64,000 bases of DNA from Halovivax limisalsi (GTDB lineage Archaea; Halobacteriota; Halobacteria; Halobacteriales; Natrialbaceae): assembly GCF_023093535.1 (NCBI RefSeq), contig NZ_CP095757.1, positions 1,550,001 through 1,614,000 on the forward strand. Direction: 5' to 3'. Below the pieces are notes generated by a model. That model made no database searches, was not told the origin of the DNA, and saw nothing but the letters and a program-made list of their open reading frames with translations. Below are positions 32,200-44,067 of this stretch, one piece after another. Both the position numbers and the translations under genes were made by a program. Every line of letters starts with the position of its first letter. The stretch's first letter is position 1.

Positions 32200-32445
32200 A
32201 TGGCGACGTCGGAATCTCCGGAGGAGACGGCCGTGAGTGAACGGGGAATGGTGACGATTCCGGCCGAGATCCGTCGCGATCTCGATATCGGGCCGGGTGA
32301 TAAGCTCCGGTGGGACATCGATTCGTCCGGTGAGTTAACCGTCGAGGTTATTCGACAGCGAGAAGGGGTTTTCGATGACTTCGAACCGGCTGACGTCGGT
32401 GAAACGGACGCCGTTTCCGTCGAGGACGAATTCGGGGCGAATTGA
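32200..32445 (+). CDS. vapB: AbrB/SpoVT-type antitoxin (VapB)
   Basis: 81 residues. Residues about 10-50 have the swapped-hairpin AbrB pattern (VSERGMVTIPAEIRRDLDIG, then GDKLRWDIDSSGELTVEVI). The remaining acidic tail (DDFEPADVGETDAVSVEDEF) is the part expected to wrap and block the toxin. The stop codon overlaps the ATG of the PIN-domain gene (TGATG), a strict coupling typical of toxin-antitoxin pairs. It is likely a DNA-binding autorepressor; a candidate operator lies upstream. Confidence 0.87.
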   Translation: MATSESPEETAVSERGMVTIPAEIRRDLDIGPGDKLRWDIDSSGELTVEVIRQREGVFDDFEPADVGETDAVSVEDEFGAN

Positions 32446-32873
32446 TGGCCGTCGCGATGCTCGATACGAACGTCCTGTTTGCCAGCGCTAGCGCGCGGGA
32501 TGCGTACCACGACCGTGCCCGGGAACTCGTTCGTGGCATCGACTACGGCGAACTGCCGGATGCAATCGTGACGGACTACGTGGTCGCCGAAGCGCTGAAC
32601 CTCGTGAGAGAGAAACTCGGTCCCGAGGTGGCGAACGGAGTACTCGAACGACTCATCGAGGGGACCCATTTCGAAGTCGTTCACACGCCACAGACGGATT
32701 TCATCCGCGCACAATCGCTATTCCGAGAGCATCCGCAACTCTCGTTCGTCGATGCGACGCTCGCCGCATACATGCACCGCGAGGACGTCCAGTACCTGTA
32801 TTCCTTCGACGACGATTTCGATGTCGTCGACGAACTCGTCCGACTTGACACGGCGACCAATCCGCATCGTTGA
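32445..32873 (+). CDS. vapC: PIN-domain ribonuclease toxin (VapC)
   Basis: 142 residues of the PIN fold. The acidic active-site residues are visible: D7 in LDTNVLF, a Glu in VVAEALN near 48, Asp in SFVDATLAAY near 102 and the Asp cluster FDDDFD near 122. VapC toxins cleave tRNA or rRNA when free of VapB. ATG 32445 overlaps the antitoxin stop; an in-frame TTG one codon earlier is rejected. The base composition is lower in GC than that of the flanking genes, in line with mobile toxin-antitoxin modules. Confidence 0.88.
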   Translation: MAVAMLDTNVLFASASARDAYHDRARELVRGIDYGELPDAIVTDYVVAEALNLVREKLGPEVANGVLERLIEGTHFEVVHTPQTDFIRAQSLFREHPQLSFVDATLAAYMHREDVQYLYSFDDDFDVVDELVRLDTATNPHR

Positions 32874-36665: not shown

Positions 36666-37118
36666 TTATGGATACGCCAGACCGTACTCGTTTTCAATAG
36701 CGAAGTCAGCGAGCGTGATCAGTTCGTCGACCCGTTTCTCTTCGCGCCATCCTTCGGCCTGCTCGCGCGCTTGCTCGCAGGCCCGAACGAATTTGGCAAG
36801 CCCAACCGGGTTCGTGACCACTTCGGACAGGTCGTCGATCCCGTATTGATTCCAGATGTCAGTGACAGATGGGTCCATCTTCTCCCCTATAGAGGTGTGT
36901 AGTTTGTAATATATTCGGAACGTGCCGTCCTCCTCGAATCGATCGACTGTTCGTCGATATTCTCGAAGATCGTCGATGGTTTCTGCCTTCGGATGCGACG
37001 CGGAAATCTCTCCCTCGTAGTATTCACGCATAGCCTCTAGATAGTACATGTAATATGCGTCGATCGTCTCTCGGGTTTGCTCGTCAGACGGGACGAGTAA
37101 TGTAATTGTGCTTCCCAT
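36666..37118 (-). CDS. Unknown protein, candidate immunity protein of the adjacent polymorphic toxin
   Basis: 150 residues, soluble, mainly helical and acidic (pattern YYMYYLEAMREYYEGEI at about 22-38; C-terminal AEGWREEKRVDELITLADF). No known domain is recognised. The ATG is three bases after the stop of the 1697-residue secreted protein, so the two are surely co-transcribed and probably translationally coupled. A small unknown gene directly downstream of a large secreted protein with a C-terminal nuclease-like domain is the usual position of an immunity gene. Codon use is much less GC-rich than in the surroundings. The immunity role is inference from position only. Confidence 0.7.
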   Translation of the reverse strand: MGSTITLLVPSDEQTRETIDAYYMYYLEAMREYYEGEISASHPKAETIDDLREYRRTVDRFEEDGTFRIYYKLHTSIGEKMDPSVTDIWNQYGIDDLSEVVTNPVGLAKFVRACEQAREQAEGWREEKRVDELITLADFAIENEYGLAYP

Positions 37119-37121
37119 ATA

Positions 37122-40100
37122 TTACAGGAGTTCTCTCACAGACTCGTGCAGCGCTTTGAGTTCGGCTGGCGTCCTCTCGAACGTTTCGACTTGCTTCACT
37201 GGGTCAGACGTATCGTCCATTCCTTTTGCCACGATGGCGATCTGGCCCTCGTTGTTCCCACTACTCACCACGAAATCGCTTTTAGAGAGGTCATCGAGAT
37301 TCACCCCTTTTTGCCCGTCTACTAGAGATATACTACTGCTGCTCTCGATGTCCGCTAACGATGTCCGGATCTGTTCGAGTTTCGAAGTCGCCGGATCTTG
37401 CCTCCCCACACCCTCTTCCGCGATCCCCACAACTTGATTTTCGCTGTTTACAATCAAGTGATCAAATTCTACGCTTCCTCCATCGACTTTGATTGTAACA
37501 CCCTTCCCAACTGATTCGGGCGTCGGATAGATCACGTCACCGCTTTTCGCAAATTTCTGGACGATGCCCTTTTCGACCGCCAGAATTTCGCCGATATCGC
37601 CAACTGACGAACTAGGTACTTTGTTCGACTCATCCATGACAAGCGCCACCCCCTGCTGGTGGCGGCTAATATCGATTACCATGTCCGCAAGCGTGCTGAT
37701 GCGGCTGGATTCCAGTCCTCGATCTAACAGTTTTCGGGTGGACGTAACCGACTCCGTTTCGAGGACGTACCGGAGTGTATCAGCATCGAGTTCATCAGCC
37801 ACCCGTGCGAGCTCATCGGCTTTCCCTGCATTGGCGAGGTCGGCGGCTTTGTCGAGCAAGTCGTCACCTTTGTCTCCGTCGCTACCGCCAGCAGCGACGA
37901 TCCTCCGTATAGTCTGGCTATCGTAGGCGTTCGTCAGGGTTTCCGCGTCGCTTCGCTTAGCTAGTTGGGCAACGAGGTCGGCCCGCAGGGCTGCGGGGAC
38001 CGTGTCCAGTCCTTCGAGCCCCGATACGACCTGCTTCGCGCTCGCCACCTCATCCACCTCTTTGGCGACCTGTTCGGCGACGGCCTCGGACAGCCCCGCG
38101 TTCTGGAGCGTTCCCTTGCGGACGCCGGTAACGAAGTTCGAGCCCTTGCCGGGCGAGACCTTGCTGGCGACAGTCTGGGCGAACTCGGGCGTGAAGTCGC
38201 CGAACTGGCGACCGGTCAGGTAGCCGAGACGCTGCATCTTCGACGCCGGGACCTTCTTGAGGACCTCGGCGGTCTTCGTGGCCGCCCTGACGAGGTCGCC
38301 CGCCTCGTCGGCCGCGATGGCCGAGCCAGTCAATGCGGCGCCGACGCCGGTGATCGACGTCGCCGCACCGACGACCTTCGCGCCGGTGGTGACGATTTCC
38401 CAGGCGGCGAAGCCGCAGTCGAGCGCGTTCTCCCAGAGGGCGTCGTTGATCGCCAGACACTCACGGACTTCGAGGGCAATCTCGACGCCGTCCTCGACGA
38501 CCGGGACGTACCCCGTCGCGATGACGATGTACGGGAAGAACCAGCCGAACATGTAGGCGACCGTGTCCGAGCCCGCGCGGTCGTTGACGTAGCCCCAGTC
38601 GCCGTAGACCATCCCGTCGAGGAACTCGTCGGTCGGGAGGCCGTCTTCGAGGTGGAACGACTGCTCCGTGATGGTCGGCTTCGTCGGATCGCCGGGATAC
38701 GGATCGTCGACGTCTGCGATCCCGTCGGCGTCGGTGTCGACGATCAAGGGGTTCGTTCGAAGGGCCTGTTCTTCCCCGTCGTCGATGCCGTCCGAATCGG
38801 TGTCCGCCCTGTCCGGATTGGAACTCAATCGAACGGTGACGACCGACTCGCCGTCGACTACCTCCTCGGCGAAGTGCGCTTCGTCGCCGTCGGGAATCCC
38901 GTCACCGTCCGTATCCGGATCGGTCGAGGAGGTGGTGAAGGTCTTGGCGGGTCCGTTCTGGGCGACCCACTCGCGGTCTTCGAGGCGGTCGGGGATCCCG
39001 TCGCCGTCCGCGTCGATCTGACTCGTTCGCGGGATCACCTGGGTGCGAAGGTTCACGCCCTCGGCGTCGATCGTGACGTTCGCCGGGCCGTGTGCGAGCG
39101 AAGAGACGTTGAAGACTTCTTCGACGGTGCCGACGGTGCCGATGGTGAGCGCCTCGTCGACGACGGTCCCGTTCGTCCCTTCGATCGTGAAATTGGCAGC
39201 CGGTTCGACGTCCGTCTGCTCGGTCTGGTACCGGACGGCGATCTCATTGACGTCCTCGCCGAGGTCGTACGTGAAGTTCGCAGTGCCGCTGTCGCCGCCG
39301 GGATCCGTCGATTCGTTCTCCTCGACCGCTTCCGGGAAGTGAATCGTCACCGGCTCGCCCATCGCCAGGTCGTGGTGTTCGGGCGCGGTCGCCTGTCCCG
39401 TCAGGAACTCCCAGCGAGTGAGTTGGCCCGGTGTCAGCGGGTCCTGCGAGGCCGCATCGTTGAAGTACGGCGTCACGGTGAGGGACCGATTCGTGAGCCC
39501 ACCGCGGAACACGCCACCGTCGGTGTTGTCGTAGTTCCACGTCCACTCTGGCCGCGTTGGCGGCCCGCGGTTGAAATCGCCGGGGTCGTCTTCGACGACC
39601 CAGTCACCCTGACTCAGGGGTAATCCGTCGAACGCCAGATCGACCGCGCCACCGGATCCATCGCGCGGTTTGTCGTGCAGGCTGACGAGGCTGAGCCCTT
39701 CCGGACCGGACCAGACGAACAGGCGGCTGGCATCGCTCTTCGCGATCGGGAGCGGTGAGTTGATCTCCGCATCCTCGTAGTCGTAGAATTCCTCGATGTC
39801 CTGGCCGTTGGTCAACGGGACGACCTGAAAGCTCTCGTTGCCCTGTTCGACGGTGATCGTTCGCGCGTCGGGCTCTCCGCCGACGAGCAGGGTACTCTCG
39901 TTCTCGACGGTGCAAGCGTCCTGACACGTAAAGTTCGATTGGTTTTCGAAGGCGATCGGGTCATCCTCCGGACCGCTGGTAGGGAACGTCGTTGCGTCGA
40001 CCCACTCCTCGCTGTCGAGCACCGTGAAGTACGAGAAGTGTTCGGTTTCGGCTACCGCACTCCCGTTCTCGATCGTCGTTTCGAGCGGCCGCCACGTGTC

Positions 40101-42215
40101 GGTCGCCGACCCGTTCCACGTGTAGACGGCGAGATCGTCGTACTCCGTCGCGGAGACCGTCTCATCGATCGGGATTTCGACCGACGCGGACTCGAAGGCG
40201 GTCGCGTTCGTCAGTCGCACCGTCGGGCCGGCGCCGGCATCGGTGGCGTTGAAGTACGCCGGTTTGGGATCGATCGACACGCCCTCGGCGACATTGCCCT
40301 GTCCGCGGACCGCGACGCTCACGCCGGTGGTCTCGTTCGAGGCGACGGTATCGAACGTCTCGTTCCCGTCCAGGATTCCGTCGTCGTCGGTGTCCGGATC
40401 CGTGGGGTCCGTGGGGAGCGGCTGTTCGCCGCCGTCCGTGATCCCGTCGTCGTCGGTGTCGGCCACGGTGGGATCGGTCCCCAGGTCGAGTTCGTCCGCG
40501 TCGCTGACGCCGTCGTCGTCGGTGTCGGGATCGTCGAAGGCCGTTCCGAGTTCTCGTTCCTCTGCCGTCGTGAGCCCGTCGCCGTCGTGATCCTCCTCGG
40601 CGTCGGAGACGCCGTCTCCGTCCGTATCCGCCACGAGCGGGTCGAAGCGATCCTGCTCGACCCGATCCGAATCGTGGCGGACCTCGAAGCGATCGGACAG
40701 GCCGTCCCCGTCGGTGTCGGCGACGAAGGGATCGGTTCCGGCCGCGAATTCGCGGTGCGTGGTCAACCCGTCGCCGTCCGGATCCTCGCGGCCGTCGATG
40801 ACCCCGTTGTCCGCTTCGTCCGCGTCGGTCGACGGGTAGTCGCTGTCGTTGCTGGCGGGGTCGGTCCCGGTGACCTCCCGCTCGTAGAAATCGGGCAGGC
40901 CGTCGTTGTCACCGTCGTTGTCGAGGTAGGCGGGGACGCCGTCTCCGTCCGGATCCTCGCGTCCTTCCTCGCGGTCGGGCGCGCCGTCGCCATCGGCGTC
41001 GGTGTCGACCCAGTTCGGGCGCCCGTCGAAGTCCGCGTCGAGCGCCGCCGGTTTCCCGTCCTCGAACTCCACGGCCGTCGGGATGCCGTCGCCGTCGTCG
41101 TCGGTGTCACGCACGTTCGGCACCCAATCCTCGTCGGTATCGGAGAAACTCTCGGACGGTCTGCGGTCCGGCACCGAATCGTCGTCCGAATCGAGATCGA
41201 GCGCGTCGATCTCGCCGTCGGCGTCGGTGTCGATCGGGAACCCGAACACGGTTTCGGCGCCGTCGCCGAGCCCGTCGCCGTCGGTGTCGTCGTCCTCGGG
41301 ATCGGTTCCGATCAGGAGCTCCCAGGCGTCGACGAGCCCGTCGCCGTCGGTGTCGATGCCGGCCGGTTCGACATCGAGCGAGTCCAGCCGATCCCGAATC
41401 TGCCGGGCGTCGCGCCAGGCGCTCGCGTACGATCCGATGGCATCGGCGCGATCGCGAACGGCCGCTTTGAACGCACGATGGCTCGTCGCGTCTATTTCCT
41501 CGGCGGCCTCGCGCTGGAGCCCCAGCCCGTTCTGGTACTCGGTTCGGGCGCGCTCGAGACTGGCCGTCAGGTCCTCGTACTGCCCGTCGGTTAGGTTCGC
41601 CCGATATCGTTGAATCGAGTGCTCGACCCGCGCGAGCTCCCACTGAGCCGTCACCCGCCCGGCTTCGGTCGTGTGCCGCGTCGCGTTCCGGACGGCCGCC
41701 AGGTCCTCTGACGGGGATGCGTGTTTCCCCTTGAATTTGACCGCGGTAGCCAGCGAGCGCGTGGCGGCCGCCGTCATCTGGATCGTGCCCCGATTGCCGG
41801 GGTCGACGGCCGATTCGTACTTTTTGACCACCCGGTTCAGCGGCGGGGCGACGGCCGATCCGGGTCCGCTGTCACTCGACTCCAGTTGATCCGTGCTCGC
41901 CTGCGCTTGGACGAGCAGGTGGCGCGGTGACGGTCCGGATTCGATGACTGGGTTTTGGGTTGTGCGTTCTTGGTCCGCTGCTACGCCAGTAACACCCTGA
42001 TTCGTGGTCGCCATCTCGTCCGGGAGAAATCTGTCGCTTGCGCCGCCATCCACTCGCTCTGGCGTTGCCGGCGCGGCGAGCACCGGCGTGACGATGATCG
42101 AACTGACGAGCAATACGGCCGTCAGGATGACCGTGAGTCTGCTGGGCCGGTCTCCGCCCGTTCGAAACTGATCCGTAATCCGGGAGAAAATTTTGTAGAA
42201 ATAGTTTGATATCAT
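37122..42215 (-). CDS. Giant secreted protein with thrombospondin type 3 repeats and C-terminal toxin-like domain (polymorphic toxin candidate)
   Basis: 1697 residues. A signal peptide (about residues 25-50, hydrophobic core ending VLAAPA) is followed by a helical segment (to ~285), a long array of D-x-D-x-D-G calcium-binding TSP3 repeats (~287-620), beta-rich domains with many N-x-S/T sequons (~625-1060), a second TSP3 group (~1062-1178) and a hydrophobic helical stretch with Gly/Ala-rich GAATSITGVGAALTGS (~1205-1310). The C-terminal domain (~1530-1697) has SVGDIGEILAVEKG, VEFDHLIV and VVGIAEEG, resembling a PD-(D/E)XK nuclease core with the usual Lys changed. ATG 42215 is chosen from the TATA at 42238-42246; the longer frame starts at 42317. 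Confidence 0.85.
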   Translation of the reverse strand: MISNYFYKIFSRITDQFRTGGDRPSRLTVILTAVLLVSSIIVTPVLAAPATPERVDGGASDRFLPDEMATTNQGVTGVAADQERTTQNPVIESGPSPRHLLVQAQASTDQLESSDSGPGSAVAPPLNRVVKKYESAVDPGNRGTIQMTAAATRSLATAVKFKGKHASPSEDLAAVRNATRHTTEAGRVTAQWELARVEHSIQRYRANLTDGQYEDLTASLERARTEYQNGLGLQREAAEEIDATSHRAFKAAVRDRADAIGSYASAWRDARQIRDRLDSLDVEPAGIDTDGDGLVDAWELLIGTDPEDDDTDGDGLGDGAETVFGFPIDTDADGEIDALDLDSDDDSVPDRRPSESFSDTDEDWVPNVRDTDDDGDGIPTAVEFEDGKPAALDADFDGRPNWVDTDADGDGAPDREEGREDPDGDGVPAYLDNDGDNDGLPDFYEREVTGTDPASNDSDYPSTDADEADNGVIDGREDPDGDGLTTHREFAAGTDPFVADTDGDGLSDRFEVRHDSDRVEQDRFDPLVADTDGDGVSDAEEDHDGDGLTTAEERELGTAFDDPDTDDDGVSDADELDLGTDPTVADTDDDGITDGGEQPLPTDPTDPDTDDDGILDGNETFDTVASNETTGVSVAVRGQGNVAEGVSIDPKPAYFNATDAGAGPTVRLTNATAFESASVEIPIDETVSATEYDDLAVYTWNGSATDTWRPLETTIENGSAVAETEHFSYFTVLDSEEWVDATTFPTSGPEDDPIAFENQSNFTCQDACTVENESTLLVGGEPDARTITVEQGNESFQVVPLTNGQDIEEFYDYEDAEINSPLPIAKSDASRLFVWSGPEGLSLVSLHDKPRDGSGGAVDLAFDGLPLSQGDWVVEDDPGDFNRGPPTRPEWTWNYDNTDGGVFRGGLTNRSLTVTPYFNDAASQDPLTPGQLTRWEFLTGQATAPEHHDLAMGEPVTIHFPEAVEENESTDPGGDSGTANFTYDLGEDVNEIAVRYQTEQTDVEPAANFTIEGTNGTVVDEALTIGTVGTVEEVFNVSSLAHGPANVTIDAEGVNLRTQVIPRTSQIDADGDGIPDRLEDREWVAQNGPAKTFTTSSTDPDTDGDGIPDGDEAHFAEEVVDGESVVTVRLSSNPDRADTDSDGIDDGEEQALRTNPLIVDTDADGIADVDDPYPGDPTKPTITEQSFHLEDGLPTDEFLDGMVYGDWGYVNDRAGSDTVAYMFGWFFPYIVIATGYVPVVEDGVEIALEVRECLAINDALWENALDCGFAAWEIVTTGAKVVGAATSITGVGAALTGSAIAADEAGDLVRAATKTAEVLKKVPASKMQRLGYLTGRQFGDFTPEFAQTVASKVSPGKGSNFVTGVRKGTLQNAGLSEAVAEQVAKEVDEVASAKQVVSGLEGLDTVPAALRADLVAQLAKRSDAETLTNAYDSQTIRRIVAAGGSDGDKGDDLLDKAADLANAGKADELARVADELDADTLRYVLETESVTSTRKLLDRGLESSRISTLADMVIDISRHQQGVALVMDESNKVPSSSVGDIGEILAVEKGIVQKFAKSGDVIYPTPESVGKGVTIKVDGGSVEFDHLIVNSENQVVGIAEEGVGRQDPATSKLEQIRTSLADIESSSSISLVDGQKGVNLDDLSKSDFVVSSGNNEGQIAIVAKGMDDTSDPVKQVETFERTPAELKALHESVRELL

Positions 42216-42237
42216 TACAGATAGAAATAGCAAAAAC

Positions 42238-42246
42238 AATAAAAAG
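42238..42246 (-). promoter_or_regulatory. TATA box of the giant secreted protein gene
   Basis: CTTTTTATT on the minus strand, about 27 bases before ATG 42215, within an AT-rich stretch (42210-42340) unlike the surrounding chromosome. It sets the start codon. Confidence 0.6.
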
Positions 42247-42455
42247 TGTTTCCATCTATAATTGATGGGGCGCACAAATCCGGCCGGGCACGATCGACGA
42301 GCCGTTTCGGTCGGCAACTGAACTAATTAACAAAATCAGACTGGGTCACCAGTCCAAACAGTATAACGGTTCCGATGAGCGAGATGGTGTTCGGTTAGCG
42401 AATGTCGGGATCTGAAACCACGCAAGATGGAGTGAACGGGACGCCTGCCATCGCT

Positions 42456-43503: not shown

Positions 43504-43761
43504 ATGTCGAGCACGACCAGGTCAAACAACAACGAGGGCGTCGAATTCGTCCACGAGGACAACGGCCAAATTACGGCCGTCGACCTCGAAACCGGCGTCG
43601 CCTCCTACGGCGACACGAAATCCGAGGCTCTCACGATGCTCGCCGAAGCGCTTGAGCTTCACGAGGGCGGTGGCGAGCCCGTCACCGACGCCGATCTCGA
43701 AGCGTGGGGCCTCGATCCTGACGAAGTAGACGACAAACCACTTCCCGACTTCATGTCCTAA
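43504..43761 (+). CDS. hicB: HicB-family antitoxin
   Basis: 85 residues. The HicB fold is visible as VEFVHEDNGQITAVDLETGV, SYGDTKSEALTMLAEALELH and an acidic tail (DADLEAWGLDPDEV). HicB binds and blocks HicA and usually represses the operon. It precedes the HicA gene by 54 bases, an arrangement of antitoxin first that is common in archaea. A TATA-like GCTTATC lies about 25-30 bases before the ATG. The pair lies in the accessory region next to the tRNA-Ala gene. Confidence 0.87.
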   Translation: MSSTTRSNNNEGVEFVHEDNGQITAVDLETGVASYGDTKSEALTMLAEALELHEGGGEPVTDADLEAWGLDPDEVDDKPLPDFMS

Positions 43762-43779
43762 CCGGTCAGACCGATGAGA

Positions 43780-43787
43780 TTTTTATG
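43780..43787 (+). promoter_or_regulatory. Possible internal TATA box for hicA
   Basis: TTTTTATG in the hicB-hicA spacer, 29-36 bases before the hicA ATG at 43816. It would allow the toxin to be transcribed apart from the antitoxin. Confidence 0.45.
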
Positions 43788-43815
43788 TATTCTCTCCCTG
43801 TCTACCAGTAACTAA

Positions 43816-44067
43816 ATGCCCAAAACGTCGTTCTCTGGCCGCGAGATTGCGAAAGTCCTCCAGAACCACGGATTTCGACGCGCCGGGCGAAAGGGAAGCC
43901 ACCTCAAACTGCGCTACGAGCACCCAGTAACCAGAGAAGTACGGATAGTTACCGTTCCAATGAAGTCCGAAGACGAGATCCCGACCGGGACGCTCCAGTC
44001 GATCGCAAACCAATGTGGCGCAGAGGATTTCCACGCCTGGTGCGAGTGGATCGACGAGAACCGATAG
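43816..44067 (+). CDS. hicA: HicA-family mRNA interferase toxin
   Basis: 83 residues with the double-stranded-RNA-binding-like HicA fold: FSGREIAKVLQNHGFRRAGR, GSHLKLRY with the catalytic His, and VTVPMKSEDEIPTGTLQSIA. HicA cleaves mRNA and halts translation unless bound by HicB. Length and motifs are complete, so the toxin appears active. ATG 43816 is used. An apparent TATA box in the spacer suggests it can be expressed independently of hicB. Confidence 0.9.
   Translation: MPKTSFSGREIAKVLQNHGFRRAGRKGSHLKLRYEHPVTREVRIVTVPMKSEDEIPTGTLQSIANQCGAEDFHAWCEWIDENR

What the first reader, a model, noticed from the sequence alone, without database searches (positions are those of the whole stretch)
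37122..37640. C-terminal domain looks like a PD-(D/E)XK nuclease with an altered active site
Seen: SVGDIGEILAVEKG (helix with conserved-looking Glu), then VEFDHLIV and VVGIAEEG in the spacing of restriction-endonuclease-like folds, but Gly where the catalytic Lys of E-x-K is expected. Inference: a divergent or not yet described nuclease toxin, or a domain that kept only the fold.
Basis: inference. Interest (0 to 1): 0.7.

Follow-up and report, generated by a model that had tools for sequence, protein, structure and literature searches.

The report
Haloarchaeal toxin tip missing catalytic lysine
A giant secreted protein of a salt-loving archaeon ends in a small domain that looks like a DNA- or RNA-cutting weapon, encoded next to its probable antidote, but this copy lacks the lysine that all six of its complete relatives keep at the predicted catalytic site, so it is either a retooled or a recently disarmed weapon.

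Summary
The three motifs are at the stated place, in the last ~180 residues of a 1,731-residue secreted-type haloarchaeal protein (37122-42317, minus strand). Six complete relatives of this domain were found (five haloarchaeal, one from another class of the same phylum). They share a G-x3-E / E-x-D / (E/Q)-x-K / Q motif series, and all six have Lys where this copy has Gly. Four of the six resemble the PD-(D/E)XK family NERD in Pfam, sub-threshold but in register. Two AlphaFold models were too poor to settle the fold. The setting is that of a polymorphic toxin: the same domain sits on two unrelated carriers (TSP3-repeat surface proteins and eCIS-core effectors), and a near relative of this carrier bears a different tip. 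A small gene directly downstream (36666-37118) is homologous to genes beside the five haloarchaeal relatives and is a predicted immunity gene. Tip and immunity gene share a G+C of 0.52 against 0.65 for the carrier. Most likely this is a nuclease toxin tip whose motif-III lysine was lost; either a lysine unique to this copy in the next helix replaces it, or this copy was recently disarmed. Activity was not shown. New variant of a known kind.

The parts
37122..42317 (-). Polymorphic-toxin-type carrier plus toxin tip, 1,731 aa as listed from a TTG. An internal Met about 35 residues in, followed by a Sec-type signal sequence ending near LAAP, is a likelier start (inference).
   Evidence: TSP3_bac repeats E 3e-15 with ten stretches.
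38766..41372 (-). Carrier body with thrombospondin type-3-like repeats, shared with a Haloarcula sinaiiensis plasmid protein that ends in a different tip.
   Evidence: 54% identity over residues 316-1184; record.
37698..38720 (-). Pre-toxin region (hydrophobic, mostly helix-like composition), not found in 120 other genomes of the family.
   Evidence: structure of the region not tested.
37122..37661 (-). C-terminal toxin tip, PD-(D/E)XK-like, G+C 0.515.
   Evidence: Homologues in six other genomes; alignments A3 and A6; G+C.
37587..37601 (-). Motif I, GDIGE (family GxxxE in six of seven).
   Evidence: Glu invariant in seven sequences.
37461..37469 (-). Motif II, EFD (family ExD, predicted metal-binding Asp).
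   Evidence: Glu and Asp invariant in seven sequences.
37410..37418 (-). Motif III, EEG: Gly (or a two-codon gap) where all six relatives have Lys.
37371..37382 (-). Motif IV helix start, KLEQ: invariant Gln, and three residues before it a Lys found only in this copy (Ala in five relatives, Gly in one).
   Evidence: Gln-anchored view; L053.
36666..37118 (-). Predicted cognate immunity protein, 150 aa; its start codon lies 3 bases after the toxin stop. G+C 0.521.
   Evidence: Homologues beside the tip in five haloarchaeal relatives, three tandem copies in one; G+C.

Best explanation
The region is the swappable C-terminal tip of a secreted haloarchaeal polymorphic toxin, with its immunity gene directly downstream. 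The tip is a PD-(D/E)XK-type nuclease domain meant to cut DNA or RNA of a competing cell; the neighbouring protein would bind it and protect the producer. In this copy the motif-III lysine is missing, while the other catalytic-type residues (E, ExD, E, Q) are kept. My preferred mechanism, at about even odds over recent inactivation, is that the metal site is intact and that a lysine unique to this copy at the start of the next helix (K107 of the fragment, three residues before the invariant Gln) takes over the role, as described for other PD-(D/E)XK families. Shown: homology, motif series, lysine loss, carrier swap, linked immunity-like gene, G+C step. Inferred: the fold, nuclease activity, secretion, neutralisation, and the replacement lysine. 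The confidence below is for the identity (nuclease-type toxin tip with immunity partner and a lost motif-III lysine); the replacement-lysine step alone I put at about 0.4-0.5.
For: Tip homologues E 6e-11 to 1e-6 by single sequence, found again by profile. Invariant E / E / D / E / Q columns across six sequences, and Lys in all other members at the predicted position. NERD matches at E 0.0022, 0.0026, 0.035 and 0.01 for four of the six lysine-bearing relatives, in register with ExD...(E/Q)xK; a Card1 endonuclease match at 0.04 for one. Same tip on eCIS_core carriers (E 1.5e-30, 5.2e-28) and on TSP3 carriers. Carrier 54% identical to a Haloarcula sinaiiensis protein with another tip. Immunity homologues beside the tip in all five haloarchaeal relatives. 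Tip and immunity gene G+C 0.515/0.521 versus 0.654 for the carrier. Precedent for motif III (D/E)X(D/N/S/C/G) with a basic residue moved to the motif-IV helix: PMC1913061; also PMC1189080. eCIS-core (DUF4157) toxins with downstream immunity genes were shown toxic and protected in Haloferax volcanii: PMC11566945.
Against: No confident structure: pLDDT 34.6 and 42.3, with best structural matches to unrelated Sm-like folds at insignificant scores. The window tip itself has no meaningful Pfam match. Basic residues in the motif-IV helix also occur in relatives that keep the normal Lys, so K107 may be coincidence. Only one sequence carries the Gly variant, so co-variation cannot be tested.
Confidence: 0.8

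Rival explanations
1. Disarmed toxin: the tip was a normal PD-(D/E)XK nuclease, and a recent substitution or two-codon in-frame deletion removed the catalytic lysine. The protein is still made but harmless, while the immunity gene remains useful against neighbours that carry active versions.
For: The nearest relatives read EEKTGGG / EEKIGG where this copy reads EEGVG, and the E-to-Q spacing is two residues shorter (15 versus 17), which fits a short deletion. A lysine is kept in all six relatives. Immunity genes can occur as extra copies.
Against: At only ~30% identity to relatives, all other motif residues and the full reading frame are intact, so loss must be recent or compensated. PD-(D/E)XK families with Gly at this place and a basic residue in the next helix are described.
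Confidence: 0.42
2. The domain keeps the fold but has another job, such as nucleic-acid binding, immunity-protein decoy, or structural cap of the secreted protein.
Against: The acidic metal-site residues are all conserved, and the cognate immunity gene is intact and adjacent.
Confidence: 0.1
3. Not a PD-(D/E)XK domain at all: a different alpha/beta toxin fold whose conserved acidic residues mimic the motif.
For: No confident structural or family match.
Against: Motif order and spacing, the (E/Q)xK column, and repeated in-register NERD matches from four relatives.
Confidence: 0.12

Closest known systems
Tox-REase families of polymorphic toxins, especially the Tox-REase-7 motif layout GxxxE, IxD, ExK, Q (Zhang et al. 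2012, PMC3482391)
   Same: Motif series G-x3-E / [EI]xD / ExK / Q, C-terminal position, downstream immunity gene, swappable carriers.
   Different: No Pfam or NCBIfam Tox-REase model matched at E up to 10. Archaeal carriers; a different immunity family; this copy lacks the Lys.
NERD (PF08378), PD-(D/E)XK nuclease-related domain
   Same: Four relatives match in register through ExD...(E/Q)xK.
   Different: All below the curated cut-off (22.1 bits); the window copy has no match; the NERD protein found in a related genome is a helicase-like protein, not a toxin tip.
Haloarchaeal T6SS/CIS DUF4157 toxin-immunity pairs (Halogeometricum borinquense, PMC11566945)
   Same: Two relatives of the tip sit on eCIS-core (DUF4157) carriers with a downstream immunity-type gene.
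   Different: The window tip is on a TSP3-repeat, apparently Sec-exported carrier. Toxin chemistry was not assigned in that paper as far as I read.
DUF506/DUF790/DUF1626 PD-(D/E)XK variants with displaced lysine (PMC1913061)
   Same: Missing motif-III Lys (Gly among the allowed residues) with a basic residue in the following helix.
   Different: Those are whole families with the displaced residue conserved; here it is one copy in a family that otherwise keeps the Lys.
PoNe, PD-(D/E)xK DNase toxin domain of T6SS effectors (abstract of PMC6688995)
   Same: PD-(D/E)xK nuclease used as a swappable antibacterial toxin with an immunity protein.
   Different: Bacterial. No direct comparison with PoNe was made; no Pfam match of any kind to a toxin family was seen here.

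Membership tests
Polymorphic toxin system | Variable C-terminal tip on a conserved carrier | tested here: met
   Haloarcula sinaiiensis carrier 54% identical over residues 316-1184 with an unrelated tip; same tip on TSP3 and eCIS_core carriers.
Polymorphic toxin system | Cognate immunity gene directly downstream | tested here: met
   Homologous small gene beside the tip in the window and five haloarchaeal relatives; neutralisation itself not testable.
Polymorphic toxin system | Export or delivery module | tested here: inconclusive
   TSP3 repeats in the carrier; signal-like N-terminus seen by eye only; relatives on eCIS-core carriers.
Polymorphic toxin system | Toxicity to a non-immune cell | not testable with these tools
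   Needs expression experiments.
PD-(D/E)XK nuclease superfamily | Acidic motif series E ... D ... (D/E)x | tested here: met
   E38, E78, D80, E95 invariant in six sequences; in the seventh E95 is Gln.
PD-(D/E)XK nuclease superfamily | Lysine of (D/E)xK | tested here: not met
   Met in all six relatives, not in the window copy (EEG). Published variants lack it too, so this alone does not exclude the superfamily.
[quoted passage not shown]
   Element order fits in a low-confidence model (pLDDT 42.3; core 50-67), no significant structural match.
PD-(D/E)XK nuclease superfamily | Metal-dependent phosphodiester cleavage | not testable with these tools
   Biochemistry needed.
NERD (PF08378) | Score above the Pfam cut-off | tested here: not met
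   Best relatives 18.9 bits versus 22.1; window tip no match.
Tox-REase-7 | Match to the published family model | tested here: not met
   No match in Pfam or NCBIfam at E up to 10; only the motif layout agrees.

The most novel reading that the evidence does not exclude
A natural polymorphic toxin tip whose PD-(D/E)XK catalytic lysine has moved to the next helix within a single lineage of an otherwise normal toxin family, catching an active-site rearrangement in progress, in an archaeal nuclease-toxin family not yet in the curated libraries searched.
Probability: 0.35. Interest if true: 0.65.

Novelty: new variant of a known kind. Interest (0 to 1): 0.45.

Why it matters
Polymorphic toxins are described as rare in archaea (PMC3482391), and few archaeal toxin tips have an assigned chemistry. 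This tip-immunity pair recurs on two kinds of carrier in five other haloarchaeal genera (plus a related tip in another class), and is a small, testable system. If the window copy is active, it would show how a PD-(D/E)XK site can shift its lysine within one close family. If it is dead, it is a clean natural example of a disarmed toxin kept with its immunity gene.

Tried and rejected
Single-sequence searches of the window tip in genome contigs, viral contigs and plasmids found nothing, nor did a profile scan of viral contigs. Searches of plasmids with the tips of three relatives found nothing. PDB sequence searches gave mainly designed helical-repeat proteins matching the first helix, rejected as composition matches. 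Two AlphaFold jobs with three-sequence alignments gave poor models. Foldseek and VIA matches were Hfq/Sm-like and insignificant; DrdV, a restriction enzyme I recall as PD-(D/E)XK, had the highest Foldseek probability listed (0.69) but E 0.29, so it is not used as evidence. Profile comparison with the Haloarcula tip was not significant. PHROGs and PADLOC gave nothing convincing. Weak tip matches L006-L008, L016, L017 and L044 (E 0.004-0.009) were judged chance from their E-values and, where read, their frame and context. A sequencing slip turning Lys into this Gly was thought unlikely because AAA/AAG to GGT needs three base changes.

Full report
Check of the observation. The region 37122-37640 is the 3' end of a long minus-strand ORF, 37122-42317, 1,731 codons. 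The window is part of a single-contig 3.9 Mb genome. The carrier holds thrombospondin type-3 repeats (Pfam TSP3_bac, E 3e-15, ten stretches) and, by eye, a Sec-type signal near the N-terminus. No library gave a meaningful match for the last 192 residues.

Relatives of the tip. A search of 391 genomes of the class found three clear relatives (E 6e-11, 3e-10, 1e-6), and a profile added two more and a fragment. Two of the loci carry public names: Haloferax elongans and Halogranum rubrum. A third lies on a Haloprofundus salinisoli plasmid, matched by the coordinates of its immunity gene. A search of the phylum found one more, in a genome of another class (E 1.3e-7). A repeat over 170 genomes of the family richest in hits added none, so the family is rare.

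The motif series. In the alignment of six haloarchaeal sequences only six columns are invariant: E38, E78, D80, V90, E95 and Q110 of the window fragment. This is the layout of restriction-endonuclease-like toxins; Zhang et al. list GxxxE, IxD, ExK, Q for Tox-REase-7 (PMC3482391). At the ExK lysine the relatives read EEK, ETK, ETK, EEK and ETK, and the window reads EEG. The relative from the other class reads QTK.

Fold. Four of the six lysine-bearing relatives match Pfam NERD (a PD-(D/E)XK family, from general knowledge) at E 0.0022, 0.0026, 0.01 and 0.035, below the curated cut-off but over the same stretch that holds ExD and (E/Q)xK; one also matches the Card1 endonuclease domain at 0.04. 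Two AlphaFold models with only three sequences were poor (mean pLDDT 34.6 and 42.3). The better one shows helix, three strands, helix, strand with pLDDT of about 50-67 over most of the core, which is the expected order but not proof. Structural searches with it gave nothing significant. The fold is thus inferred from sequence, not shown.

Setting. The tip is found on two unrelated carriers: TSP3-repeat proteins, and eCIS_core (DUF4157) proteins (E 1.5e-30 and 5.2e-28). A Haloarcula sinaiiensis plasmid protein is 54% identical over carrier residues 316-1184 and then ends in a different tip. Directly downstream of the toxin stop, after three bases, lies a 150-codon gene whose homologues stand beside the tip in all five haloarchaeal relatives, with three tandem copies in one; in Haloprofundus another gene is annotated between. 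G+C falls from 0.654 in the carrier to 0.515 in the tip and 0.521 in the downstream gene, as expected for a tip and immunity cassette acquired together. For DUF4157 toxins of Halogeometricum borinquense, toxicity in Haloferax volcanii and rescue by the downstream gene were demonstrated (PMC11566945), which makes the same logic plausible here.

What the missing lysine may mean. In PD-(D/E)XK enzymes the lysine positions the attacking water; several families lack it and carry a basic residue in the next helix instead, with motif III of the form (D/E)X(D/N/S/C/G) in one of them (PMC1913061; PMC1189080). Anchored on the invariant Gln of that helix, the window copy alone has a Lys three residues before it, where five relatives have Ala and one Gly. 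This is suggestive, but basic residues at neighbouring positions occur in lysine-bearing relatives too, and one sequence cannot show co-variation. The opposite reading, a recent two-codon deletion that disarmed the toxin, fits the shorter E-to-Q spacing (15 versus 17 in the nearest relatives). Conservation of every other motif residue and of the full frame means that any loss is recent or compensated. I hold the two about equal, slightly favouring the displaced lysine.

Verdict. Observation confirmed. Interpretation partly supported: a PD-(D/E)XK-type toxin tip in a haloarchaeal polymorphic toxin with a predicted immunity partner, in an altered-site copy. It belongs to a known kind of system; the tip-immunity family has no model in the libraries searched, and the variant site is the unusual part. 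Activity, target and neutralisation remain to be tested.

Noticed in passing
window 32200-32873 (+): MazE/AbrB-type antitoxin (E 2.5e-9) overlapping a PIN-domain toxin gene (E 3e-17): a VapBC-like toxin-antitoxin pair.
   Followed up: partly
window 43504-44067 (+): DUF7387 gene (E 9e-37) followed by a HicA toxin gene (E 9.6e-16): a HicAB-like pair.
   Followed up: partly
G000:C1:3333959-3334186 (L049): The same genome holds one eCIS_core (DUF4157) protein (E 1.3e-28), so a contractile-injection effector may be present elsewhere.
   Followed up: no
L013 141-1482 (-): Three tandem immunity homologues behind one tip, with further copies elsewhere in that genome: a poly-immunity array.
   Followed up: partly
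L003 2554-3186 (+): A second fragment downstream that begins with the same carrier sequence (MLPQKGELEIDP...) and carries another tip: looks like an orphan toxin cassette.
   Followed up: no
L053 2375-3253 (+): Behind the tip of the non-haloarchaeal relative, a headless fragment with pre-toxin and a different C-terminus, probably an orphan toxin cassette.
   Followed up: no
L014 1405-1722 (+): A truncated copy of the tip, cut after motif I and followed by a transposon-type TnpB-like ORF: a decayed cassette.
   Followed up: no
L036 10441-10890 (+): The different tip of the Haloarcula sinaiiensis carrier also contains a D-x-Q...ESK...Q pattern that could be another restriction-endonuclease-like toxin; no family match.
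   Followed up: partly
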